Positions 2,452 to 56,449 of a DNA stretch of 64,000 bases are shown piece by piece. The position numbers were made by a program, and so were the translations under genes. Within the stretch, counting starts at the first letter, position 1; every line of letters starts with the position of its first letter. Source of the DNA: Candidatus Ruthia endofausta (GTDB lineage Bacteria > Pseudomonadota > Gammaproteobacteria > PS1 > Pseudothioglobaceae); NCBI RefSeq assembly GCF_013342985.1, contig NZ_CP054490.1, positions 992,001-1,056,000 of the forward strand. The letters run 5' to 3'. The notes under the pieces were generated by a model. That model saw only the letters and a program-made list of their open reading frames with translations. It was not told the DNA's origin and ran no database searches.

Positions 2452-3753
2452 ATGTCGCAAATCTGGTCAGAATGTTTAAACACTCTTAGAGACAGTATCC
2501 CTCTTTCTCAATATAGTGTATGGATACAGCCCTTAAAAGCATTTGAAAATAACAATACTTTATCTTTATTAGCACCTAATTTTCAAGTGCTTAACTATAT
2601 CAATAAGAACCTGAAAGCACAAATCAAAAATGCAGTTGCACAACACAACAAAAATCTAAAAATTTTTATCAGTATCGCAACCAATCAAAATTCACAAAAC
2701 ACCCAACAACACACCACGCCTTTATTTGAAGACTACACATTTGATAATTTAGTACTGGGCAATGCCAACCAAATGGCCTATGGCGCAACCAAACAAATTG
2801 CTGAAAATATAAAAACCTCGCCCTACAATCCTTTTATTATTTATGGTGGTTCAGGCCTTGGAAAGACGCACTTAATGCAAGCTTCTGGACACTTAGCAAA
2901 AGAAAAAAATCCAAATATTAAAATAATCTATGTACCTTTAATGGACTTTGTTAGGAACATTACCTCCAGCCTGAGACACAACACCATTGAGAATATTAAA
3001 ACTTTTTATCAATCTGCTGATTTATTATTGGTCGATGATGTCCATTTAATTGCAGGCAAAGAAAAATCTCAAGAAGAATTTTTTCATATTTTTAATTTTC
3101 TATTCAGTGGTAAAAAGCAAATTATTTTTACCTGTGACCAACCACCTAAAAACATCAAATCGCTAGAAAATCGCTTAAAAACCCGATTTTCCCAAGGTTT
3201 AAACCTACATCTAACCCCGCCAGAATTAGAAATGCGCGCTGCTATTTTGCTTAAAAAAGCACAAAATAAAAGAATTAACATCAACTTAACAGAAGATACT
3301 GCTTTGTTTATTGCTGGTCATATTTCTTCTAATGTTAGAGACCTTGAAGGTGCACTTCTTAAACTTAAAGCCTTTATTGATTTTTCAAAAATCAATCATG
3401 ATTTTATCTCTAAAGAAATTATTGAAACAGCTTTAGGTGATTTAATCAAACCCCAAGTTAAAAACATCGACATTAACGATATACAAAAAGAAGTGGCTAA
3501 ACATTACGCTTTAACTATCTCTGATTTAAGCTCAAAATCCCGTAAACAACACATGGTACTTGCCAGACAAATGGCAATATTTATTTGCCATGAATTGAGC
3601 TCTTTATCACTGAGCAAAATTGGAAAACATTTTGGAAATCGAGATCATTCCACTGTTTTACATGCGATTAAAAAAATCAAAAAAAAACACCTAGAGAGTA
3701 TTGAAATAAAGAATGATTACGAATTAATAAAATTAAAATTAGCTAACTTATAA
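2452..3753 (+). CDS. dnaA: Chromosomal replication initiator DnaA
   Basis: This 433-aa AAA+ initiator binds DnaA boxes at oriC and melts the origin. The N-terminal domain I (SECLNTLRDSIPLSQYSVWI) is followed by a short, Asn/Gln-rich linker, which explains why it is shorter than E. coli DnaA. The ATPase has Walker A GGSGLGKTHLMQA near residue 132 and Walker B LLLVDDVHLIAG near 190. Domain IV carries the DnaA signature NRDHSTVLHA near 397, which binds DNA. The chosen ATG gives a full domain I. It leads dnaA-dnaN-gyrB, the classical origin cluster. Confidence 0.98.
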   Translation: MSQIWSECLNTLRDSIPLSQYSVWIQPLKAFENNNTLSLLAPNFQVLNYINKNLKAQIKNAVAQHNKNLKIFISIATNQNSQNTQQHTTPLFEDYTFDNLVLGNANQMAYGATKQIAENIKTSPYNPFIIYGGSGLGKTHLMQASGHLAKEKNPNIKIIYVPLMDFVRNITSSLRHNTIENIKTFYQSADLLLVDDVHLIAGKEKSQEEFFHIFNFLFSGKKQIIFTCDQPPKNIKSLENRLKTRFSQGLNLHLTPPELEMRAAILLKKAQNKRININLTEDTALFIAGHISSNVRDLEGALLKLKAFIDFSKINHDFISKEIIETALGDLIKPQVKNIDINDIQKEVAKHYALTISDLSSKSRKQHMVLARQMAIFICHELSSLSLSKIGKHFGNRDHSTVLHAIKKIKKKHLESIEIKNDYELIKLKLANL

Positions 3754-3966
3754 ACATACCCACACCTAACTTATCCAACCAGGTGTTAACAACATTAACA
3801 ACCTAAACACTTTATAAAATTTATACACATATCCATATTTTTTTACATAAAATACTTAAATGTTATCAACAGACTAAAACTTTATTTTTTAAAGAAAAAT
3901 AACCATTATTAACATAAGATAACCATACTAATAATAATAATAACTTTTTGATAAAAGGATTTTCTA
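3754..3966 (+). other. oriC: Candidate oriC (dnaA-dnaN intergenic region)
   Basis: This is a very AT-rich 213-bp spacer. TTATACACA at 3821-3829 is an exact match to the relaxed DnaA box TTWTNCACA. TTATCAACA at 3863-3871 differs from TTATCCACA by one base, and TTATCCAAC at 3771-3779 is a weaker match. Repeats of ATAATA and A/T runs (3890-3950) could be the unwinding element. The only strong box is one, so origin activity is an inference from position and composition; the dnaN ribosome site AAAGGA also lies here (about 3954-3960). Confidence 0.45.
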
Positions 3967-5070
3967 ATGGACACACAACTCACTGTTAAAGAACTACTTG
4001 AACCCCTACAAACAGTTATTAGTGTAGTTGAGAAAAAACAAACATTGCCCATCCTTTCTCATGTTCTTATCCAACTTAAAAATAATTTGTTAACTTTAAC
4101 CACAACAGACATGGAAATTGAGATAAGAGCTTCTCAAGTTATAAAAACCCAAGAAGAAGCTTTTTTTACAATTTATGCAAAAAATTTAATTGATATCATC
4201 AAAAAATTATCAGAAGACACTATAATTGAATTTATTATTGAAAGTTCTAAAATTTACATTAAAACTAATAAAAATTCATTTGAGCTTAATACCTTTAATC
4301 ATCAAGATTTTCCATCATTACCAAAAATAGAAAACAATAATATCATTAAAATTAAACAGCATATTTTAAAAGATTTAATTGAAAACACTAGTTTTTCAAT
4401 GGGTAACCAAGACATTAGAGCTTACTTAAACGGTTTATACTTTGAGTTTGATAAAAATAGTATCACCGTTGTTGCAACTGATGGTCATCGACTTGCTATT
4501 GGCGAAGTGAAACAAGTCAACAACTTATCTAATAAAAAAACAATTATTTTACCAAGAAAAGCGGTACTTGAATTAACCAAACTACTTAATAAAAATAGAC
4601 ACGAAGAAATTACCATCCATTTATCAGATAATTATTTTTATCTTATTAGCAATAATACGACTATTATTAGTCGATTAATTGATGGTAATTTCCCTAACTA
4701 TTTACAAGTATTACCCACAAATTTTAACAACACCATTATTATTGACCGCTTAGCTTTTTTAAATTCACTACAGCAAGCCTCAATTTTTGTTGAAGAACGA
4801 ACTAAAGGTGTTAAATTAATATTTAAGGATTCACAACTACACATTTTTTCACATTCTGAAAGAGGGCAAGCCAAAACACAAATCAGCACTAAAAATTTTG
4901 ATAAAGAAATTGAAATTGCATTTAACATTCACTACTTGATTTCAATTTTAGAAAAATTACACACCAACGAAATTAATATGGTGGTATCTGGTGAAGAAAA
5001 CCAATCTTGTTTACTAAGTAGTATGAATGACGACATTTATCAATATGTTGTTATGCCTATGCGTATTTAG
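3967..5070 (+). CDS. dnaN: DNA polymerase III beta subunit (sliding clamp)
   Basis: This 367-aa protein forms the ring-shaped clamp that tethers DNA polymerase III and other repair proteins to DNA. The sequence has three repeated clamp domains; typical signatures are VVEKKQTLPILSHVLI at the start, TDGHRLAI near residue 170-180 and the C-terminal hydrophobic-pocket ending YQYVVMPMRI. The length is normal. An AAAGGA ribosome site lies about 8 nt ahead of the ATG. The stop codon is the first three bases of a 16-bp perfect palindrome that probably ends the dnaA-dnaN transcript. Confidence 0.98.
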   Translation: MDTQLTVKELLEPLQTVISVVEKKQTLPILSHVLIQLKNNLLTLTTTDMEIEIRASQVIKTQEEAFFTIYAKNLIDIIKKLSEDTIIEFIIESSKIYIKTNKNSFELNTFNHQDFPSLPKIENNNIIKIKQHILKDLIENTSFSMGNQDIRAYLNGLYFEFDKNSITVVATDGHRLAIGEVKQVNNLSNKKTIILPRKAVLELTKLLNKNRHEEITIHLSDNYFYLISNNTTIISRLIDGNFPNYLQVLPTNFNNTIIIDRLAFLNSLQQASIFVEERTKGVKLIFKDSQLHIFSHSERGQAKTQISTKNFDKEIEIAFNIHYLISILEKLHTNEINMVVSGEENQSCLLSSMNDDIYQYVVMPMRI

Positions 5071-5102
5071 TATTATTAATAAATTGTTTATTAATAATAC
5101 TA
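5068..5102 (+). terminator. 16-bp AT-only palindrome at the dnaN stop
   Basis: The dnaN stop TAG begins a perfect inverted repeat: TAGTATTATTAATAAA, loop TTG, then its exact reverse complement. It is all A/T, so it is not a standard GC-rich terminator, but it is long and perfect and sits exactly at the gene end. It probably ends or protects the mRNA on that strand. Confidence 0.5.
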
Positions 5103-7917
<2,815 letters not shown>

Positions 7918-47680: not shown

Positions 47681-47756
47681 GCCGAAGTAGCACAGTTGGT
47701 AGTGCAACTGATTTGTAATCAGTAGGTCACCAGTTCGAGTCCGGTCTTCGGCACCA
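47681..47756 (+). tRNA. tRNA-Thr(UGU), integration target
   Basis: 76 nt with encoded CCA. The acceptor GCCGAAG pairs with CTTCGGC and the anticodon loop TTTGTAA gives UGU. The T stem has an A-C mismatch at 52:62, also known from other threonine tRNAs. TATAAT at 47663-47668 is a good -10 box. The 3' part from the anticodon stem onward is repeated at 56398-56449, marking it as the attachment site of the element. A hairpin with TAGTG/CACTA and AAAAGG/CCTTTT (47761-47799) follows as terminator. Confidence 0.96.
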
Positions 47757-47758
47757 TA
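47707..47758 (+). repeat. attL: attL (inside tRNA-Thr)
   Basis: 52-bp direct repeat matching 56398-56449 at 50 of 52 positions. It begins ACTGATTTGTAATCAGTAGG in the anticodon arm and ends past CCA. Confidence 0.9.
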
Positions 47759-47802
47759 TTTAAAAGGGTTTGTAGTGATCACACTATGAGCCTTTTTTTA
47801 TG

Positions 47803-47823
47803 CGTGTCGTAGTGGTGTCGTAA
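47803..47823 (+). repeat. Left 21-bp subterminal repeat (candidate Int arm site)
   Basis: Two copies of GTGTCGTA separated by GTG. The same 21 bp, with one central change, lies at 56264-56284 near the other end in the same orientation. Confidence 0.6.
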
Positions 47824-47964
47824 CTAGGTTGTTTTTCACCCTAAAATCGTTCAATTTAGCACCCCACCCCCCAAACACCGTCTTTCTCTCTATACATAAG
47901 GTTACCTTCCCACAGTGGAGGGGAAAATTATTTTTTAGGTTGTTTTTGAGATACAATTAGACCT

Positions 47965-48426
47965 ATGAAACTAAAAACACTACTACTATCTTCATTAGTA
48001 TCATTAGGGCTGGCTATCAGCTATCCAACTCTATCCAACGAATTAACTCAAGCCAAGAAAGACTATTTAAACAAAGTCTCTGAGAAATTTAAGAGTCAGT
48101 GGAGAATCCCAAAAGCAAAAGATGGCTGGACTTGTGAAGTGTATATCTTGCAAGATAGAGATGGCAATGTATTGAAGAGTAATGTTAGTAAATGCAATAC
48201 TGACGACAAGCGGTTTATTAGTCAAACTGAGAAAGCTGTCAAACTAGCATCGCCTTTTCCTAGAGCATCAGACGAAGTATTTACCAGTGAGTTGACTCTA
48301 AACCCGACAATAAAGGGTGACGTAGATGTTTCAAGGAGTCTACGAAAAAGAGCGTTAGACGGAGACCCAAAAGCTATAGAAATATATAACAATATAGGTG
48401 AACCATTAAGCAGTAATCATAAATAA
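47965..48426 (+). CDS. Secreted TolA C-terminal-domain-like protein
   Basis: This 153-aa protein has a signal peptide (MKLKTLLLSSLVSLGLAISY) and one domain like the C-terminal domain of TolA/TonB: YLNKVSEKFKSQWRIP, then CEVYILQDRDGNVLKSNVSK and a C in KCNTDD that could pair with the first Cys, then KAVKLASPFPRASDEVF. TolA-C normally binds Pal, TolB and phage minor coat proteins or colicins. Here no TM-linker part exists, so it would be free in the periplasm. It is the first cargo gene, 37 nt ahead of the helicase. Its role in the element is not known; decoy or receptor-like functions are speculation. Confidence 0.7.
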   Translation: MKLKTLLLSSLVSLGLAISYPTLSNELTQAKKDYLNKVSEKFKSQWRIPKAKDGWTCEVYILQDRDGNVLKSNVSKCNTDDKRFISQTEKAVKLASPFPRASDEVFTSELTLNPTIKGDVDVSRSLRKRALDGDPKAIEIYNNIGEPLSSNHK

Positions 48427-48463
48427 AATTTGCCTAGCTTAAATACTAATAAAGAATAATATT

Positions 48464-51400
48464 ATGGCGGAGACAAAACATCTTATACCTGGACCATTCT
48501 GGAGACTACTTGGATTCAAAGGTGGCTCTATTGATATTAGTGAAAAAGGAATAACACTACACAAAAGTGATAAAAGCTACTTTATTGATAACCATGCCTT
48601 TCTAAAGAAGGGGTTTGCTAAAGAAGGGTGGTTTAGTTTTGATCTAACATTTAATACCACAGAGGGTGAAATTAAGTTTGGCCCCCTATCCCACGCTAAA
48701 GCAACAGAAGCATACGAATGGTTGCAAAGTTATTGGTACAAAGAAATCTTCTCTGATATAAATACAACATTCAAGCAACTACAAAAAAGGCTTACGAGTC
48801 GATATATTAGAAGCTCTCAGTGGCCTGACATTGTAAGTGATGCACAATCTGCATTAAATAGATTTGTAGAGCCGCCTAACGAAGGCTTAGTAGATACTGA
48901 TACTAAACACCCCTTTGACAGAATATATTACTACGCCCACATGGGAAAGAAAGACTTAAAAAAGTATCGTGATAAATATATAGAAACAAAGAAGAGAAGT
49001 TTTAAGAAGTATTTTGAGAATATCGAAGCTCACCCATTAACCAAAGACCAGATTGAAGCCTGCATCATAGATGAAGACAACAACCTAGTATTAGCTGGAG
49101 CTGGAACAGGTAAGACCAGCACTATGGTTGGTAGAGCTGGATTTTTGTTGGAAAGTAAACAAGCAAAACCTGAAGATATGTTGATGCTTGCGTATGGTAA
49201 GGAAGCATCCAAAGAGATGCAAGACAGAATGAAAGAACGAATAAATAGAGAGGATGTTGATATTAGCACCTTTCATAAACTAGGCATGAATATCCTCTCT
49301 GAAGTTGAAGGCGGCCAGCCCAATATTAGTAAATATGCTGAAGACAACAAATCTAGAAATAGCGTATTCAAACAAGATGTTGGCAAGTGGATTGACGAGC
49401 TATTAGAGGAGGACAGTTATAAAGATAAAGTTATTAAGTATTTTGAAGATTGCTTGTTTGTAGAAAAAAGTCCTTTCGATTTTAAATCACACGGTGAATA
49501 TTATTCATATGTTGAAGATGATGACATACGCACCTTTAAAGGGGAAAAGGTCAAAGGTTATGGCGAAAGAGTTGTTGCAAATTTTCTTTTTGCTATGGGA
49601 ATTGAATATGAATATGAGACTGAATATAAGGAGTCCGATACTAGAACTAAAGACTATAGAAGATATGAGCCAGACTTCTATTTACCAGAGCATGGTATTT
49701 ATATAGAACACTTTGGCGTAGACAGAAATGGAAACACTGCACCTTATATTGACAGAGATACATACATTGAAGGCGCTAGATGGAAGCGTAAGCTTCATAA
49801 AGAGAATAAGACCAAACTTGTGGAAACTTACTTTTATGAACACATAGAGGGGATATTAAAAAACAGATTAACAGAGAGATTAAAAGCACATGGCGTTGAA
49901 TTAAACCCTATTCCTAATGATGCACTTATTGAAACTTTGCGGGACAACAAAGAGATAACCAAGTTTTCGGATTTAATGGCTGAAATCATCAAGAGATACA
50001 AAGCCAACTGGTTTGAGCAAGATAAATTAAATAGAAAGATAGATTCTTCCCCATATAAAGAGCATTTAAATATTGCAAAAGAATTAATGATGCCACTATG
50101 GGACAGATATGAAAAGATATTAAGTGATAGTCATAAAATTGACTTTGACGATATGATTGGCAAAGCTTTAGAATATGTAGAGAACGGAAGCTTTAAGCCG
50201 CATTGGAAATATATCATGGTTGATGAGTTCCAAGATATATCAGACCCTAGGGCTAGACTAGTCCAAGCATTAAAAGAGAAATCAAATAACTGTTCTTTGT
50301 TCTGTGTTGGAGATGATTGGCAGGCTATTTCCAGATTTACTGGAAGTGATATTAGTTTTACAACAGGATTCTCAGAATACTTTGGGGTAACGAAATTTAC
50401 CAAACTCAAGAAAACCTTTAGGTTCAATAATAGTATTGCAGAAGTGTCCTCACAATTTGTTCTAAAGAATCCTTTTCAAACCAAGAAATCAATAACCACC
50501 CTCAGCAAGGTTAAAAAGCCAGCCGTTTCTATACTTAGAGAAAGTAATAAAGTTGTTGCTGGAGACGACAAGGAACTACACTTACTATTAGGAAAACTCA
50601 CTAAAGAACCAGATAACAACAAGGCTCCTTATTTGCTTGGTAGCTACATACAGTTAGACAAAGTGCTGCAAGCTATCAATAAATTAGACCGAAAGGTTTC
50701 TGTGCTAATCTTAGGAAGATATACATATACAACACCTAGCCCTGCAGAAATGAAACTGCATAAGGAGAAATTTCCTAATTTAGAATTGGAGCAACACACG
50801 ATCCACAAATCAAAAGGTAAAGAGGCAGATTACGTTATTATTATGGGGCTACAGTCTGGAAAGCATGGATTTCCTTCAGAAAAAACAACTAATCCACTAC
50901 TAGATGCCCTGCTGCCAACTCCTGAAGATTTTGAATTTGCAGAGGAAAGAAGATTATTTTATGTGGCAATCACAAGATCTAGAAAGCGTTCTTATCTAGT
51001 TGCTGATATGAGTACTTCATCAAAGTTTGTAAATGAATTGATTGAAGGTGATTATGAGATTGAGTTAAACGAATTTGATATTACGGAGGAACAAAGAATT
51101 GTTCACACGTTTCATTGTGTCGAATGTGAAACTGGAGTTATGCAACGAAGGATTAACGCAAAGAAGAAAACAACATTTTATGGATGCTCACATTATTCAT
51201 TATGTAAATACACTGAAGATGGATGCCTGAAGTGTGGAGGTCGAATGAATCATCTAAATGATACAAATGGTAAGTATAAAATTTGCTCTGACTGTGACTA
51301 TTGGATTCCAATATGTGTCTCTTGTGGTGGAGATATGAAGATTCAAGAAAACAAAGCTAATGGCAATCAATTCTGGGCCTGTTCTCATTTTTATGGGAAA

Positions 51401-51679
51401 GAAAACGCCTTGTCATGTGATTATACAAAAGGCCTGTCTGCAGTAAAACCTCCTGCAGGCTACGAAAAGACTATGGAAGAGCCAATTAAACCTAAAATTT
51501 CAAATAAAAAAGGCAGTATTACCAAGGAAGAACTTGAAGACAAATGGAGTAATAAGACATTTTTATCTCAAAAAGAAGCCTATGCTTATGCCAGTGAATT
51601 GGCAAAGGTGAGAAGGTCGACAGTTGATTGTATAGAAAAGGATGGATATTGGTCAGTGGAATTAAAGGAGAAAAAATAA
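48464..51679 (+). CDS. HelD/UvrD-type helicase with inserted PD-(D/E)XK-like nuclease and C-terminal zinc fingers
   Basis: A 1071-aa superfamily I helicase resembling DNA helicase IV. The N-terminal domain (1-120) is HelD-like. Walker A VLAGAGTGKTSTMVGRAGFL is near 208-220, Walker B IMVDEFQDISDPRARLVQAL near 582, GDDWQAISRFTGSD near 616, HTIHKSKGKEADYVIIMGLQ near 777 and the arginine motif FYVAITRSRKRSYLV near 830. Between, at about 365-465, an insert reads GERVVANFLFAMGIEYEYE, EPDFYLPEHGIYIEHFG and later KRKLH, the E...D...ExH pattern of a restriction-endonuclease fold. The C-terminus (885-990) holds CxxC zinc fingers like topoisomerase C4 fingers. A likely DNA-processing nuclease of the island; target unknown. 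Confidence 0.88.
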   Translation: MAETKHLIPGPFWRLLGFKGGSIDISEKGITLHKSDKSYFIDNHAFLKKGFAKEGWFSFDLTFNTTEGEIKFGPLSHAKATEAYEWLQSYWYKEIFSDINTTFKQLQKRLTSRYIRSSQWPDIVSDAQSALNRFVEPPNEGLVDTDTKHPFDRIYYYAHMGKKDLKKYRDKYIETKKRSFKKYFENIEAHPLTKDQIEACIIDEDNNLVLAGAGTGKTSTMVGRAGFLLESKQAKPEDMLMLAYGKEASKEMQDRMKERINREDVDISTFHKLGMNILSEVEGGQPNISKYAEDNKSRNSVFKQDVGKWIDELLEEDSYKDKVIKYFEDCLFVEKSPFDFKSHGEYYSYVEDDDIRTFKGEKVKGYGERVVANFLFAMGIEYEYETEYKESDTRTKDYRRYEPDFYLPEHGIYIEHFGVDRNGNTAPYIDRDTYIEGARWKRKLHKENKTKLVETYFYEHIEGILKNRLTERLKAHGVELNPIPNDALIETLRDNKEITKFSDLMAEIIKRYKANWFEQDKLNRKIDSSPYKEHLNIAKELMMPLWDRYEKILSDSHKIDFDDMIGKALEYVENGSFKPHWKYIMVDEFQDISDPRARLVQALKEKSNNCSLFCVGDDWQAISRFTGSDISFTTGFSEYFGVTKFTKLKKTFRFNNSIAEVSSQFVLKNPFQTKKSITTLSKVKKPAVSILRESNKVVAGDDKELHLLLGKLTKEPDNNKAPYLLGSYIQLDKVLQAINKLDRKVSVLILGRYTYTTPSPAEMKLHKEKFPNLELEQHTIHKSKGKEADYVIIMGLQSGKHGFPSEKTTNPLLDALLPTPEDFEFAEERRLFYVAITRSRKRSYLVADMSTSSKFVNELIEGDYEIELNEFDITEEQRIVHTFHCVECETGVMQRRINAKKKTTFYGCSHYSLCKYTEDGCLKCGGRMNHLNDTNGKYKICSDCDYWIPICVSCGGDMKIQENKANGNQFWACSHFYGKENALSCDYTKGLSAVKPPAGYEKTMEEPIKPKISNKKGSITKEELEDKWSNKTFLSQKEAYAYASELAKVRRSTVDCIEKDGYWSVELKEKK

Positions 51680-51682
51680 TCG

Positions 51683-52912
51683 ATGAGTATGGGTGATATA
51701 GTTAAAAAGAGCAAGATATTAATAATTGACTGGGATTTTATTAGTGCCGACATGAAGGGTTGGTATGGTTTTCCCGTGCATGGGCATTTAGTAAAGAAGT
51801 GGCTAGATACGGGTACGTATGAAAGAAAAACTATGGATTTGTATAACAATATGCGTGCATCTTCCGTGTTTTCTACGCTACCAAGTGACAGTCCTATACG
51901 ATGGTTAATCAGCATGTTTCGATGGTTTTACTTTAAGCAGAAAGACTATCTTGGAGTAGATCAATATGGTGAAGGACTTGAGGATGTTTTTGCCTCTGAT
52001 CCAGAGTTGGTTGAACACTTATATAACGAATATTATCAATATTTTTTAGAGAACTCCAGTTTTACAATTAATGATCAAATTCAAAGACTGATTGATAGAA
52101 AACCAGACGATTGGGAGCTAGGTATTGTTTCATTGGATAGAACTAGAGAAGAAATTGAGTTAATTCTTTCAGATAAGTTTTCAGCTATCCAGGAATATAG
52201 AAAGATATTTGCCCATAGACTTTGCACAGACTCTCCAATTCGGTCTCACGCACCACCACCAATCCACGAAAGTGTTCAATTTGTATCTGAAGAGATAGAT
52301 GCCTATAGTCTTAGGGATGATTTAGACGTGTATATATTATCCAATATAGAATTTAAGAAGCATCTATATTTCCCCCAAAAGATCAGTGTTATAGAGATAT
52401 GGGGAGATAAGACTGTAGATGATTTTGATTTTAATAATCCTGACCAAGTTTTGGTTGAGCCGAACATTGAAAAAGTTTCAGAGAATACTGAGAATGGTCC
52501 AAAAAAGATTGCACACGCATATGATATTATTTTTAATAAATTTCCTTTTATACAGAAAACAAGAGATTTCTTTGAAGATACAGGAGAGATTATAGGTGGC
52601 GCACTTCTAGTGTACACATTGCTTGTGATTTTTATTTCATCAATATTAGACTGGTTTGGGTTGATAGATAGTTATTCAGATTCAATGATATATACAATAG
52701 GAATACCATTTTTTGTCATGCTAGCTGTATGGGTTGTTTTTTGGGGCTTGCTTTTAATATTTCTGATACTTACAGAAGTTCCTGTAGCTGTCATCAATCG
52801 TTTCTACGAAAATAAGGAGTTAGGTTTAGACACACGGGACGCCACCTGGAAAGCAGTAAAACCAGTTATTATATGGACACCAATATTGATATTGCTAGCC
52901 TATATTGTTTAA
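51683..52912 (+). CDS. Unrecognised membrane protein with large soluble N-terminal domain
   Basis: This 409-aa protein is coupled to the helicase gene (3-nt gap). Residues 1-295 are soluble; 8-17 read KSKILIIDWD, a hydrophobic strand ending in DWD as in HAD-type motif I, and later DLDVYILSN and IEIWGDKTVDDFDF resemble other HAD motifs, but the usual catalytic pattern is incomplete. Residues about 305-405 contain three TM helices (LLVYTLLVIFISSILDWF; IGIPFFVMLAVWVVFWGLLL; IWTPILILLAYIV). No family is recognised. A phosphatase-like or membrane-effector role is only an inference. An ATG at 51689 is an alternative start. Confidence 0.6.
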   Translation: MSMGDIVKKSKILIIDWDFISADMKGWYGFPVHGHLVKKWLDTGTYERKTMDLYNNMRASSVFSTLPSDSPIRWLISMFRWFYFKQKDYLGVDQYGEGLEDVFASDPELVEHLYNEYYQYFLENSSFTINDQIQRLIDRKPDDWELGIVSLDRTREEIELILSDKFSAIQEYRKIFAHRLCTDSPIRSHAPPPIHESVQFVSEEIDAYSLRDDLDVYILSNIEFKKHLYFPQKISVIEIWGDKTVDDFDFNNPDQVLVEPNIEKVSENTENGPKKIAHAYDIIFNKFPFIQKTRDFFEDTGEIIGGALLVYTLLVIFISSILDWFGLIDSYSDSMIYTIGIPFFVMLAVWVVFWGLLLIFLILTEVPVAVINRFYENKELGLDTRDATWKAVKPVIIWTPILILLAYIV

Positions 52913-52919
52913 ACATGAA

Positions 52920-53438
52920 ATGAGTAATTGTGTCGAAAATCAACTAAGAATCAGATCAACTCAGTTTAATAAACTAGAAGAGTATTTAGAAGTTAAAGGC
53001 ATTGTTGAGAAGTCTGGACAAACGTCAGATGGCCTAATCAGAATTTGTAAGTTTCCTAGCCAGGAATATGAAGATGTTGTGGGCGATGGAGTTGCTGAAA
53101 TATCTATTGTTGGTAAGTCGACTCACTATGTAGGATTGTCTTTAAAACAAAGCAAAGGTTGCGCCCCTGGAACAGATACATTCTTCATTTGCCCTGATTG
53201 CAGTAATCGATCTAGATACCTATATTCTGTGCCAAGAGGATTGATGTGTTCTTCATGTGCAGGACTATATTATGAGGCTTCTCCGCAGCGGGCAGCACGA
53301 GGCTTTTCAATAGCCAGACACTTGCGTGCTAGACACGGATTAGGACGAGATAATGTCAAACCTAAATGGATGCATTACAAAACCTATGATCGCCTCATAT
53401 CACGCTTGCACACGCTGGAAAGCAACCTGTTTACTTGA
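52920..53438 (+). CDS. Zinc-ribbon protein of the island
   Basis: This protein of about 172 aa begins at ATG 52920; a TTG at 52905 would overlap the previous gene by 8 nt. The N-terminal half (NQLRIRSTQFNKLEEYLEVK) is of unknown fold. The C-terminal half has a zinc ribbon, CPDCSNRSRYLYSVPRGLMC with CSSC, followed by AGLYYEASPQRAARGF and a basic stretch, a pattern seen in small nucleic-acid-binding proteins of mobile elements. It is the last gene of the helicase-membrane protein-zinc ribbon run. Function unknown. Confidence 0.6.
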   Translation: MSNCVENQLRIRSTQFNKLEEYLEVKGIVEKSGQTSDGLIRICKFPSQEYEDVVGDGVAEISIVGKSTHYVGLSLKQSKGCAPGTDTFFICPDCSNRSRYLYSVPRGLMCSSCAGLYYEASPQRAARGFSIARHLRARHGLGRDNVKPKWMHYKTYDRLISRLHTLESNLFT

Positions 53439-53624
53439 TAGCAGTCTAACGAATTCTTTGTGCATTCTACTGTGAGGGTTAAGGTTGTCTGCATTCATAC
53501 ACATCTGCATCTACTCTCTAACTAGGGTAGGTGTGGGTAAAGGTAAAGGTACAACCTTAGCCAAAGGAGTAACTACCGTGCCAGGTAAAGGAACAACTAT
53601 TGGCATAGGAACAAGTATGGGTAA

Positions 53625-54080
53625 TCATATCCAGTCAACTTCACTATTTATTTCACAATCAATTTCTTTAATTATGCGTTCTGCTTTTGAATAATAATTC
53701 ACCTTGCCTATATCTTGTTTCTTGCTGTCTTGTGTGACATCTGTAACTTGAATTAGGAAGCACTTATCATCAAACTTGGAATGAGGATAGTCTCCATCGT
53801 TGGCCTTTCCAAACAATCTTCTCCATTCTCTAATGTAAGCAGATTTAGTGCCGTTTTCCCATATAACCTCACCATCTGGATTAGGTTTTTTTGATGTTTT
53901 CAGATTGTAGTGACGAGTGAGATTTATATTGTTATATTCTCCAGATATGATCTCTAGGTGAAGTCTTGCTTTAAAACCCCATGGACTAGGCTTAACTTCT
54001 GATTTAATACACTTGGCCTTATATTCTCCTTCTGGGATTAACGGGTCATCATTGAGTTCACATTTGATATTGTTATTCAT
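53625..54080 (-). CDS. Phage/plasmid-type hypothetical protein
   Basis: This 151-aa acidic/basic soluble protein contains IPEGEYKAKCIKSEVKPSPW, then GFKARLHLEIISGEYNNINL and YIREWRRLFG, a pattern I know from small proteins in prophages and integrative elements whose fold recalls OB-like single-strand-binding proteins. The gene lies 3 nt from the alpA-like gene. A role in element replication or excision is inferred only. The 186 bp between it and the zinc-ribbon gene contain imperfect GGTAAAGGTACAAC-type repeats (about 53530-53600) but no supported gene. Confidence 0.6.
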   Translation of the reverse strand: MNNNIKCELNDDPLIPEGEYKAKCIKSEVKPSPWGFKARLHLEIISGEYNNINLTRHYNLKTSKKPNPDGEVIWENGTKSAYIREWRRLFGKANDGDYPHSKFDDKCFLIQVTDVTQDSKKQDIGKVNYYSKAERIIKEIDCEINSEVDWI

Positions 54081-54083
54081 TGA

Positions 54084-54281
54084 TTACGCCTCGCTGGTGG
54101 AATGAAATTTTTTACTGGTGAAGTATTCATCTAAGTCTGACACTTGATACCTAATAGACCTACTTCCTACCTTAATAAACAAAGGCCCATCACCTTCCCA
54201 TCTCTTTCTACGAAACCATGCTTTGCTCATTCCGTATAGTTTTGACGCTTCCTTTTCATCTATGATTTTTTTACACATCAC
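54084..54281 (-). CDS. alpA: AlpA-like excisionase/regulator
   Basis: This 65-aa protein has a winged-helix DNA-binding fold of the AlpA/excisionase type: IIDEKEASKLYGMSKAWFRR then KRWEGDGPLFIKVGSRSIRY and SDLDEYFTSKK. In relatives it activates the integrase gene or acts as a directionality factor. It is on the integrase strand, upstream of the 216-aa gene, consistent with control of excision. Confidence 0.85.
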   Translation of the reverse strand: MMCKKIIDEKEASKLYGMSKAWFRRKRWEGDGPLFIKVGSRSIRYQVSDLDEYFTSKKFHSTSEA

Positions 54282-54368
54282 TTTTCCCTTGGTTGTTATG
54301 ATGCGCTAAGTTTAGATACAGGTGGTCATTTGCCTATGGCGTAAATCTGTAGTTTTATAAAGAGGTTT

Positions 54369-55019
54369 TTAGCCACCTCTGCACCACCTTCTTATCTTTC
54401 CTTTTGTAAACTCTCCTTTTGAGTCATTAAATGCCGATGATATTAGTACTGACAGAGATTCCCAGTGCGGAGTTCCTGTTGCACCCCTTATTGTTTCTTC
54501 TAGTCTTCTGGCTAGGTATACAGCCCCTCTCAAGTATGTTGATTTTTCATTCATCCTATCAGCTAGAGTTGGAATGATTATAGATTTTGATATTGAATCT
54601 AAGTCTGATGTAATTTTTTTTAGTATTAAGTTATCGCCTGCTGAAAAATAACCATAATTGTACTTATATATTCTTTTAATATCTTTAGCGGTTTTTAATA
54701 AAGTGTCTTGCAATTCATCAGCATGTTGTTGTCTTTCCTTTCTTGTCATAAGGTGCTGTTGCTTTTCTGCATCTTCTACATAACCCCAAGCGCTAAGAGC
54801 CTCATCTATGATATTTGTAATGTCACCTGATTCTTCTACAGATTTATATAATTCCTCCCAAGCAAATTTTGATTGTTCATTTGTGATTGAAAAGAACATC
54901 TCTTCACCACGGTAATAAGACTCATAGTTTTTATGCTTAAAGTAGTTTTTAATTTCATCTGGCCACCAGTTTAGCAGCTTTGGATTTTGCAATATTTGTG
55001 GACGCAACATATCATTCAT
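54369..55019 (-). CDS. Unrecognised island protein
   Basis: This 216-aa soluble protein is rich in charged residues with helical, possibly coiled-coil stretches (EKQQHLMTRKERQQHADELQ; DNLILKKITSDLDSISKSII) and a basic C-terminus (KGKIRRWCRGG). No family is recognised. It lies between alpA and the integrase and its start overlaps the integrase stop region by 4 nt on the same strand, so it is downstream of and probably translated with the integrase. A role linked to integration or regulation is inferred from this. Confidence 0.55.
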   Translation of the reverse strand: MNDMLRPQILQNPKLLNWWPDEIKNYFKHKNYESYYRGEEMFFSITNEQSKFAWEELYKSVEESGDITNIIDEALSAWGYVEDAEKQQHLMTRKERQQHADELQDTLLKTAKDIKRIYKYNYGYFSAGDNLILKKITSDLDSISKSIIIPTLADRMNEKSTYLRGAVYLARRLEETIRGATGTPHWESLSVLISSAFNDSKGEFTKGKIRRWCRGG

Positions 55020-56248
55020 AATTTCACCTTGATATCAGCGGCTTCAATAATTGAATGTTCAATCTGTTGCATTGCTTTTCTAGGTCTTTCAATATCAAAA
55101 CTGATATAACCACCAGTTACATCTTCATCGATAGCATGATTGACCAGGTGTTTAATAATAAATGACGACAGGTCTAAGCCTTCTGCAATGGTAATAAAAG
55201 TTCGACGAAGGTCGTGGATCATAAACTCAATCCCGCTTGTATTCTTTATATGACTTATTGCTCTTCGTGCTTCGGTTAAGTGTCCAGACTTACCGCCACC
55301 TGGAAAGATGAACTGCGAGTCAGAAGAAGATAGCTTCCTTATAAGAACATTGCCAATATAGTTTCCTAAGGGAAGTATATGATCCTTGCCATTTTTTGTT
55401 AGTCTTCCTGGTATGTTAATAAGCCTTCCCTTCAGATCAAACATTGACCACTCTAACGCTGCGCATTCGCTTCTACGCATCCCAGTAAATAGTAATAACA
55501 TCAAGTAGTCTCTTGTCGTTTCATTACTGACAGTCTGTAGTGCTGACCACCAGTCTTGAAGTTGATACTTATGTATGACACTTTTACGTCTAGTCTTTTG
55601 ATTCCACCTCTTTCTTTCAGTTAAAGCCGAGACAGGGTTCTCTGGAAGGCTTTTATTTTCTGCTCTAGTATGATTCCATATACCTCTTAAGAGTCTTGCA
55701 GCAAGGTCTGCATAATAAGGTCCGTGTGTTTCAGATATATCTAGATGCCAACTTAAAACCGCATTTGGCGTAATCGATGACAACCTTTTGTTTTTCCATT
55801 TAGACAATGCTCCTGGGTGGCTTGAGTCACTCTTAACACCTTTACGCCCACCTTTGCTTACGAATAGTCTCCGATAGTCATAAACAGTTTTCTTGGATAG
55901 GGGGCCTTTAGATCTTGGAGCATTTATATAGTTTTCGAATGCCTCACCTAGTAGTATTTTTTCAGATAAAACTATTCGTTTTTGCTCTAATGGGTCCTTG
56001 CCAGTGGCAACCTCTCCGAGCATCTTCTGAGCTTCTCTTCTGGCTTGTTCTACAGTTAGGTTGGGGTACGGGCCTATAGTGATTCTAGATTGCTTCCCAT
56101 TGATTGTTTTCTCAATAATGAATGCCTTATAGCCACTTGAAGTTACCCTTATTCCAAAGCCTTTCAGGGTGTCATCCATGTAACGCCTCTGTGCAGACTT
56201 TCCTTCTGGAATAGGAAGAGAGTCAACCTTTCTTTTTGTGATATTCAT
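55016..56248 (-). CDS. int: Tyrosine-family site-specific integrase
   Basis: This 410-aa integrase of the P4/CP4 type begins with a DUF4102-like arm-binding domain (MDDTLKGFGIRVTSSGYKAF, IGPYPNLTVEQARREAQKML) and a SAM-like core-binding domain. The catalytic domain shows Arg in TGMRRSECAALEW near 252, His-x-x-Arg in HDLRRTFITIAE near 341, His in HLVNHAIDEDV near 363 and Tyr in TGGYISFD near 378. It lies beside attR with its start 150 bp from it, the usual arrangement for tRNA-targeting islands. It probably recombined the tRNA-Thr site. Confidence 0.95.
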   Translation of the reverse strand: MNITKRKVDSLPIPEGKSAQRRYMDDTLKGFGIRVTSSGYKAFIIEKTINGKQSRITIGPYPNLTVEQARREAQKMLGEVATGKDPLEQKRIVLSEKILLGEAFENYINAPRSKGPLSKKTVYDYRRLFVSKGGRKGVKSDSSHPGALSKWKNKRLSSITPNAVLSWHLDISETHGPYYADLAARLLRGIWNHTRAENKSLPENPVSALTERKRWNQKTRRKSVIHKYQLQDWWSALQTVSNETTRDYLMLLLFTGMRRSECAALEWSMFDLKGRLINIPGRLTKNGKDHILPLGNYIGNVLIRKLSSSDSQFIFPGGGKSGHLTEARRAISHIKNTSGIEFMIHDLRRTFITIAEGLDLSSFIIKHLVNHAIDEDVTGGYISFDIERPRKAMQQIEHSIIEAADIKVKL

Positions 56249-56263
56249 GGCATTAAAATCTCG

Positions 56264-56284
56264 TGTCGTACTGGTGTCGTAAAT
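56264..56284 (+). repeat. Right 21-bp subterminal repeat (candidate Int arm site)
   Basis: Matches 47803-47823 at 20 of 21 positions in the same orientation: GTGTCGTA, CTG, GTGTCGTA, with C instead of G in the centre. It lies just ahead of the integrase start. Confidence 0.6.
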
Positions 56285-56397
56285 AGAATTAATTACAGGT
56301 AGTAAACCTTCCTATTCAGTATAACACTTAAGCACCTATATATAAGGTATATTAGCACTCTGTAGCGCTTATTAACAAATGATATATATTGTTGTTC

Positions 56398-56449
56398 ACT
56401 GATTTGTAATCAGTAGGTCGCCAGTTCGAGTCCGGCCTTCGGCACCATA
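56398..56449 (+). repeat. attR: attR
   Basis: 52-bp copy of the tRNA-Thr 3' part including CCA. The two differences from attL are G for A and C for T at positions that pair with each other in the T stem. Confidence 0.9.

What the first reader, a model, noticed from the sequence alone, without database searches (positions are those of the whole stretch)
49557..49860. Nuclease-like insertion inside the HelD-type helicase
Between Walker A and Walker B a block of about 100 residues shows GERVVANFL, EPDFYLPEHG, IYIEHFG and a later KRKLH. The E...D...ExH/K order fits a restriction-endonuclease fold inserted in the helicase core rather than fused at an end.
Basis: partly seen in the sequence, partly recalled or inferred. 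Interest (0 to 1): 0.6.

Follow-up and report, generated by a model that had tools for sequence, protein, structure and literature searches.

The report
Helicase with a nuclease built inside
A DNA-unwinding enzyme related to E. coli helicase IV carries a DNA-cutting domain inside its motor; it rides on a mobile element, has hundreds of relatives in bacteria and archaea, and suggests that the textbook E. coli enzyme is a stripped version that lost its nuclease.

Summary
The finding is real. Window 48464-51679 (+) encodes an intact 1071-aa SF1 helicase homologous to E. coli DNA helicase IV along its length (33% over 653 columns), with about 130 extra residues in subdomain 1B, between Walker A and Walker B. 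A confident AlphaFold model (pLDDT 94) of this block has an alpha-beta core that best matches the Vsr-like homing endonuclease I-Bth0305I (Z 10.3). Its sequence profile hits only T7 endonuclease I in the PDB. The conserved set is E368, D404, E415, K441 and H445, each in at least 97% of 107 relatives. At least 369 relatives exist, annotated only as UvrD helicases. Insert-free helicase IV (E. coli, Vibrio) falls inside the nuclease-bearing family, beside members with decayed nucleases, so loss of the nuclease is the best reading; statistically this depends on archaeal or cyanobacterial rows. Here the gene is cargo of an 8.7-kb integrative element in tRNA-Thr, absent from sister genomes. Most likely it is a mobile helicase-nuclease that unwinds and cuts foreign or branched DNA. 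Cleavage and defence are inferred, not shown.

The parts
48464..51679 (+). helicase-nuclease gene, 1071 aa
   Evidence: intact ORF; UvrD-helicase Pfam E 3e-42; AF2 of whole protein pLDDT 88.5, pTM 0.82
48464..49003 (+). N-terminal domain (res 1-180), counterpart of the helicase IV N-terminal domain
   Evidence: hhalign to E. coli helicase IV starts at res 19; no PF12462 hit by sequence HMM
49094..49117 (+). Walker A (AGAGTGKT, res 211-218)
   Evidence: conserved in at least 95% of 107 relatives
49526..49906 (+). inserted Vsr/T7-endonuclease-I-like nuclease domain (res about 355-481) in subdomain 1B
   Evidence: AF2 pLDDT 94, VIA-align to I-Bth0305I Z 10.3, Vsr 8.7, profile hit to T7 endonuclease I E 7e-4
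49565..49567 (+). E368, first acidic residue (helix alpha-1)
   Evidence: 105 of 107; aligns with E20 of T7 endonuclease I
49673..49675 (+). D404 of the PDF motif
   Evidence: 106 of 107 (the search pattern included PDF); aligns with D55 of T7 endonuclease I
49706..49708 (+). E415 of IYIEHFG
   Evidence: 104 of 107; aligns with E65 of T7 endonuclease I
49784..49798 (+). K441-H445 (KRKLH), conserved basic residues on the following helix, proposed substitute for the missing ExK lysine
   Evidence: K441 106/107, H445 105/107
50222..50236 (+). Walker B/motif II DEFQD (res 587-591)
   Evidence: invariant or nearly so
51116..51418 (+). C-terminal zinc-ribbon region (Cys 885-985), topoisomerase-I-type C4
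   Evidence: Pfam PF01396 weak here (E 8.5e-5, below cutoff), strong in L041 (7e-18); Cys conserved
47681..47756 (+). tRNA-Thr(tgt), integration site
   Evidence: ARAGORN
47707..47758 (+). 52-nt direct repeat, left attachment site
   Evidence: the repeat finder; single copy in sister genomes
56398..56449 (+). 52-nt direct repeat, right attachment site, 96% identical
55016..56248 (-). tyrosine integrase of the element
   Evidence: Pfam Phage_integrase 3e-16 and Arm-DNA-bind_3 9e-18
47965..48426 (+). element gene with TonB_2 C-terminal match, upstream of the helicase
   Evidence: Pfam 1.3e-5; homologue also upstream of the helicase in G007

Best explanation
This is a single-protein helicase-nuclease: a 3'-5' SF1A motor of the E. 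coli helicase IV type with a Vsr/T7-endonuclease-I-like PD-(D/E)XK nuclease inserted in subdomain 1B, plus a C-terminal zinc ribbon. Shown by computation: fold, insertion site, conserved motor and nuclease residues, and mobility. Inferred: 1B contacts the duplex ahead of the motor in UvrD/PcrA (established knowledge), so the nuclease should cut at or near the single-strand/double-strand junction while the motor unwinds or remodels DNA, with E368, D404 and E415 binding metal and K441 (with H445) replacing the ExK lysine. The gene is probably mobile cargo acting on foreign or branched DNA (phage, plasmid or recombination intermediates). Insert-free helicase IV of E. coli and Vibrio is best read as a descendant that lost the nuclease.
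For: Homology to E. coli helicase IV over 653 columns except the block. AF2 of the block pLDDT 94, pTM 0.87; I-Bth0305I Z 10.3, Vsr 8.7, Bax1 6.5, Hjc 6.0; viral structure library hits named Vsr, homing endonuclease, endonuclease I, Holliday junction resolvase, E down to 1e-5. Profile search hits only T7 endonuclease I in the PDB, and Pfam Phage_endo_I in 9 of 14 members. Motor and nuclease residues both conserved in 107 sequences. Full-length model closest to PcrA/Rep/UvrD, Z 28. At least 369 relatives from one search pattern, many phyla and archaea, 56 plasmids. Element with att repeats, integrase and empty sites in sisters. Within the genus, the G008 copy groups with Campylobacterota at 100. 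Neighbours include type I methyltransferases, LmuB and DUF262 pairs. Tree nests insert-free helicase IV beside decayed members L020, L176 and L041; AU test rejects one clade of insert-bearing rows (p 0.0045, 0.0034).
Against: No cleavage has been shown, and the substitution of the lysine is inferred without model coordinates. Foldseek alone gave no PDB match under E 0.001. Defence is only contextual: no neighbour recurs across the family, and the neighbour counts had no control set. The loss scenario rests on distant haloarchaeal or cyanobacterial rows; without them the AU test does not reject a single insert-bearing clade (p 0.165-0.28), the groups were named after seeing the tree, and the support joining insert-free helicase IV to L020/L176 is only 85-86.
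Confidence: 0.72

Rival explanations
1. Housekeeping DNA repair or recombination enzyme: the nuclease resolves branched intermediates (Holliday junctions, flaps, R-loops) that the helicase IV motor migrates to, with no role against invaders.
For: Closest sequence match is a junction resolvase, T7 endonuclease I; Hjc and RecU appear in the fold list; some plasmid neighbours are translesion polymerase and SOS genes.
Against: Patchy: 17 of 398 Pseudomonadota genomes, 3 of 12 in the window's genus from two lineages; carried by an integrative element, plasmids and provirus-like contigs.
Confidence: 0.3
2. The inserted domain keeps the nuclease fold but only binds DNA, as a duplex clamp of the helicase.
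For: The canonical ExK lysine is missing (F/Y); several members have lost acidic residues yet keep the domain and an intact motor: L020, L041, L176, L198.
Against: In the window and in 104 of 111 non-redundant members the site is intact, and K441, H445, W440, Y434 are kept at 97-99%, more than binding would need.
Confidence: 0.2
3. The insert was gained once within a helicase IV family whose ancestor was insert-free; E. coli helicase IV keeps the ancestral state.
For: Without the distant archaeal and cyanobacterial rows the AU test cannot reject it (p 0.165-0.28).
Against: Homologous inserts sit at the same place in helicases branching outside (L209, L211, L206); AU rejects with these rows. 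Insert-free forms were found in only two of the sampled Pseudomonadota families. Nearest relatives of the insert-free forms have decayed nucleases.
Confidence: 0.15

Closest known systems
E. coli DNA helicase IV (helD, NP_415482.1)
   Same: same N-terminal domain, motor and order of motifs; 33% identity over 653 columns
   Different: 684 aa; no nuclease insert and no zinc ribbon
T7 endonuclease I (Pfam Phage_endo_I; 3cae, 2pfj)
   Same: E-D-E positions align in a profile match, E 7e-4
   Different: stand-alone junction resolvase with an ExK lysine; here that position is F/Y; 9 of 14 members hit the Pfam family weakly, the window's own block does not
I-Bth0305I and Vsr (EDxHD / very short patch repair endonucleases)
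   Same: best structural match, Z 10.3 and 8.7
   Different: stand-alone or tethered to DNA-binding repeats; different catalytic histidine arrangement; no helicase
UvrD-Cas4 helicase-nuclease fusions (PMC5704561)
   Same: UvrD-like SF1 helicase with a PD-(D/E)XK nuclease, sporadic, defence-type neighbours
   Different: nuclease is Cas4/RecB-like and fused, not inserted in 1B
Gram-positive HelD (PMC8655204)
   Same: SF1 core with an insertion at the equivalent 1B position
   Different: that insertion is the clamp-arm used on RNA polymerase, not a nuclease

Membership tests
PD-(D/E)XK (restriction-endonuclease-like) nucleases | alpha-beta core with central sheet | tested here: met
   AF2 model and VIA-align matches
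PD-(D/E)XK (restriction-endonuclease-like) nucleases | E, PD and (D/E) acidic residues in order | tested here: met
   E368, D404, E415 conserved 97-99%
PD-(D/E)XK (restriction-endonuclease-like) nucleases | lysine two residues after the second acidic residue (often migrated or replaced in this superfamily) | tested here: not met
   position is F (60%) or Y (33%); K441 on the next helix is the candidate substitute
PD-(D/E)XK (restriction-endonuclease-like) nucleases | metal-dependent DNA cleavage | not testable with these tools
   needs biochemistry
Phage endonuclease I (PF05367) | match at the curated cut-off | tested here: not met
   window block: no hit at E up to 10; 9 of 14 relatives hit, best E 2.9e-4
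Vsr / EDxHD endonucleases | fold match | tested here: met
   Z 8.7-10.3
Vsr / EDxHD endonucleases | family-specific catalytic His/Asp pattern | tested here: inconclusive
   H416 is H in 65% and Y in 29%; no residue-level superposition was available
DNA helicase IV (NF008276/PRK11054) | curated score cut-off of 543 bits | tested here: not met
   492 bits over the whole protein
DNA helicase IV (NF008276/PRK11054) | homology over N-terminal domain and motor | tested here: met
   hhalign E 2e-106, 653 columns
DNA helicase IV (NF008276/PRK11054) | PF12462 Helicase_IV_N | tested here: not met
   no hit in the window protein at E up to 1; E. coli protein hits at 5.6e-63
Known anti-phage systems (PADLOC) | match to a specific system beyond the shared UvrD motor | tested here: not met
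   only generic UvrD matches (RTasHel, GajB), best stretches in the motor
UvrD-Cas4 fusions | Cas4-like nuclease fused to a UvrD-like helicase | tested here: not met
   nuclease is Vsr/endonuclease-I-like and inserted

The most novel reading that the evidence does not exclude
A widespread, unnamed single-gene mobile defence enzyme in which the nuclease sits in the helicase's own duplex-contacting 1B subdomain, and from which E. coli helicase IV descends by inactivation and deletion of the nuclease together with the zinc ribbon, i.e. a defence enzyme domesticated into a housekeeping helicase.
Probability: 0.4. Interest if true: 0.8.

Novelty: new variant of a known kind. Interest (0 to 1): 0.62.

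Why it matters
Helicase-nuclease machines are usually built by fusion at an end or from separate subunits. Here the nuclease is built into the motor at the subdomain that meets the duplex, in hundreds of proteins now annotated only as UvrD helicases. Helicase IV of E. coli has had little functional and no structural work (PMC8655204); a nuclease-bearing ancestry gives a testable account of its odd 1B region and of what its substrates may be. The gene's spread on mobile elements makes it a candidate single-gene defence system.

Tried and rejected
Foldseek on the PDB gave nothing under E 0.001, with influenza PA first at very low TM-score; these were treated as noise and the VIA-align re-ranking used. 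T7 endonuclease I is not in the VIA list, which does not exclude it. Mutual exclusion of insert-free and insert-bearing forms was considered: none of 398 genomes has both, but only about one overlap is expected by chance and Vibrio sp. THAF190c has both, so it was dropped. A conserved partner gene was sought and not found. The nuclease as a general divergence hotspot was tested in 214 pairs and rejected. An L206-like viral relative was sought without result. Literature searches found no paper describing a nuclease inserted in 1B of a UvrD-like helicase; the library is partial.

Full report
What is there. The finding lies in one intact ORF, window 48464-51679 (+), 1071 aa. Pfam and NCBIfam place it with UvrD/REP helicases, best with DNA helicase IV (492 bits, below that model's cutoff of 543). 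Against E. coli helicase IV (P0001, 684 aa) a profile comparison aligns 653 columns at 33% identity, E 2e-106, from the N-terminal domain to the end of the motor, with one large gap in subdomain 1B. The quoted strings sit in that gap: GERVVANFL 367-375, EPDFYLPEHG 402-411, IYIEHFG 412-418, KRKLH 441-445.

What the block is. AlphaFold2 on the block (window 49481-49945) with 71 relatives gives pLDDT 94.2 and pTM 0.87, in the order helix 27-38, strand 66-68 (PDF), strand 73-78 (IYIEHF), helix 92-108 (WKRKLH), strand 112-117 (model numbering). VIA-align ranks the I-Bth0305I catalytic domain first (Z 10.3, rmsd 2.3, 96 of 97 residues, 19% identity), then two mitoribosomal chains (Z 9.4, 9.2), then Vsr (8.7, 7.6) and a putative Neisseria endonuclease (7.5), with Bax1, VRR-NUC and Hjc below. 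The viral structure library gives Vsr, homing endonuclease, endonuclease I and Holliday junction resolvase names. By sequence, a profile of 14 inserts hits only T7 endonuclease I among all PDB sequences (E 7e-4), and 9 of 14 members hit Pfam Phage_endo_I. The whole-protein model (pLDDT 88.5) aligns with PcrA, Rep and UvrD at Z 25-28.

Active site. In 107 full-length relatives E368 is kept in 105, D404 in 106, E415 in 104, K441 in 106 and H445 in 105. Most relatives were collected with a pattern that contains PDF, so D404 is partly built in; the others are not. The T7 endonuclease I alignment pairs E368, D404 and E415 with its E20, D55 and E65 (residue numbers from general knowledge), while the K67 position is F or Y. 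I infer that K441, with H445, supplies the basic residue from the following helix. Coordinates of the model were not available, so distances were not measured.

Spread. One pattern finds 369 relatives in the genome collection: mainly Gammaproteobacteria, also Latescibacterota, Acidobacteriota, Campylobacterota, Bacillota, Chlorobiota, Bacteroidota and an archaeon; 28 viral contigs, about half of them strong; 56 plasmids including haloarchaeal ones. The strong full-length hits share the same architecture. Annotated plasmid records call it 'UvrD-helicase domain-containing protein'; none that I saw names the nuclease. In an even sample, 17 of 398 Pseudomonadota genomes carry it.

Mobility. In the window the gene lies inside an 8.7-kb element: 52-nt repeats at 47707-47758 and 56398-56449 (96% identical), the first being the 3' end of tRNA-Thr, with a tyrosine integrase at 55016-56248. 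In sister genomes homology runs to about 47759 and resumes at 56398, the repeat present once: an empty site. Only 3 of 12 genomes of the genus have the gene. In G007 it lies elsewhere, near a methyltransferase, a DEAD-type helicase and an HTH gene (gene names read from the translations); the G008 copy groups with Campylobacterota (support 100). So the gene moves.

Evolution. A tree of the helicase core without the insert columns puts the insert-free helicase IV proteins (E. coli family and a second family that by its identity to plasmid records looks like Vibrio; one clade, 98-99) inside the insert-bearing family, beside L020 and L176, whose nuclease is decayed (PDF altered or lost, E415 to N or H) and whose zinc ribbon is gone, and then L041, which has E368A and E415A. 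L198, in another branch, has E368K and also lacks the zinc ribbon. Homologous inserts sit in more distant helicases: L209 and L211 (haloarchaea) and L206 (Anabaena plasmid). With these and closer insert-free outgroups the AU test rejects all insert-bearing rows as one clade (p 0.0045; p 0.0034 without L206). Without them it does not (p 0.165-0.28). I take loss as the better reading, probability about 0.8.

Zinc ribbon and nuclease. Of 111 non-redundant members, the three with no C-terminal CxxC motif (L020, L176, L198) are all among the seven with an altered active site; L020 and L176 are sisters, so this is two events. It hints that the two parts work together.

Function. Shown here: fold, place of insertion, joint conservation of motor and nuclease, and mobility. 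Inferred: cutting near the unwinding junction. Defence is suggested by mobility and by neighbours such as type I methyltransferases (5 of 131 neighbours), LmuB, DUF262 pairs, a reverse transcriptase and an ISP-type enzyme, but no partner recurs and there was no control. DNA repair remains open.

Comparison. UvrD-Cas4 fusions (PMC5704561) are the nearest described helicase-nucleases of similar distribution, with a different nuclease fused rather than inserted. Gram-positive HelD has an unrelated clamp-arm at the equivalent 1B position (PMC8655204), so 1B tolerates insertions. I found no description of this architecture in the held library.

Noticed in passing
window 47707-56449: 8.7-kb integrative element in tRNA-Thr(tgt) with 52-nt att repeats, a tyrosine integrase and several genes of unknown function (51683-52912 membrane protein, 52905-53438, 53625-54080, 54369-55019); empty sites in sister genomes.
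   Followed up: yes
window 49526-49906 and 51170-51679 against L228 8491-11721: Between the window gene and its homologue in G007, third-position identity at identical residues is about 0.8 along most of the gene but 0.45 in the nuclease and at the C-terminus: a mosaic, as if modules had been exchanged. Not seen family-wide.
   Followed up: partly
L198, L020, L176, L041: Members with altered nuclease residues but intact motor; three of them also lack the zinc ribbon.
   Followed up: partly
L197 and L022: In two genomes the gene is split into two overlapping ORFs close to or inside the nuclease block.
   Followed up: no
L206 (Anabaena sp. 90 plasmid) 3461-6538: A distant SF1 helicase without the zinc ribbon carries the same kind of nuclease at the same place, which hints at a wider family of 1B-inserted nucleases.
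   Followed up: partly
plasmid hits H10, H34, H36-H39 (Acinetobacter): Several Acinetobacter plasmids carry the gene in two pieces without annotation, probably broken copies.
   Followed up: no
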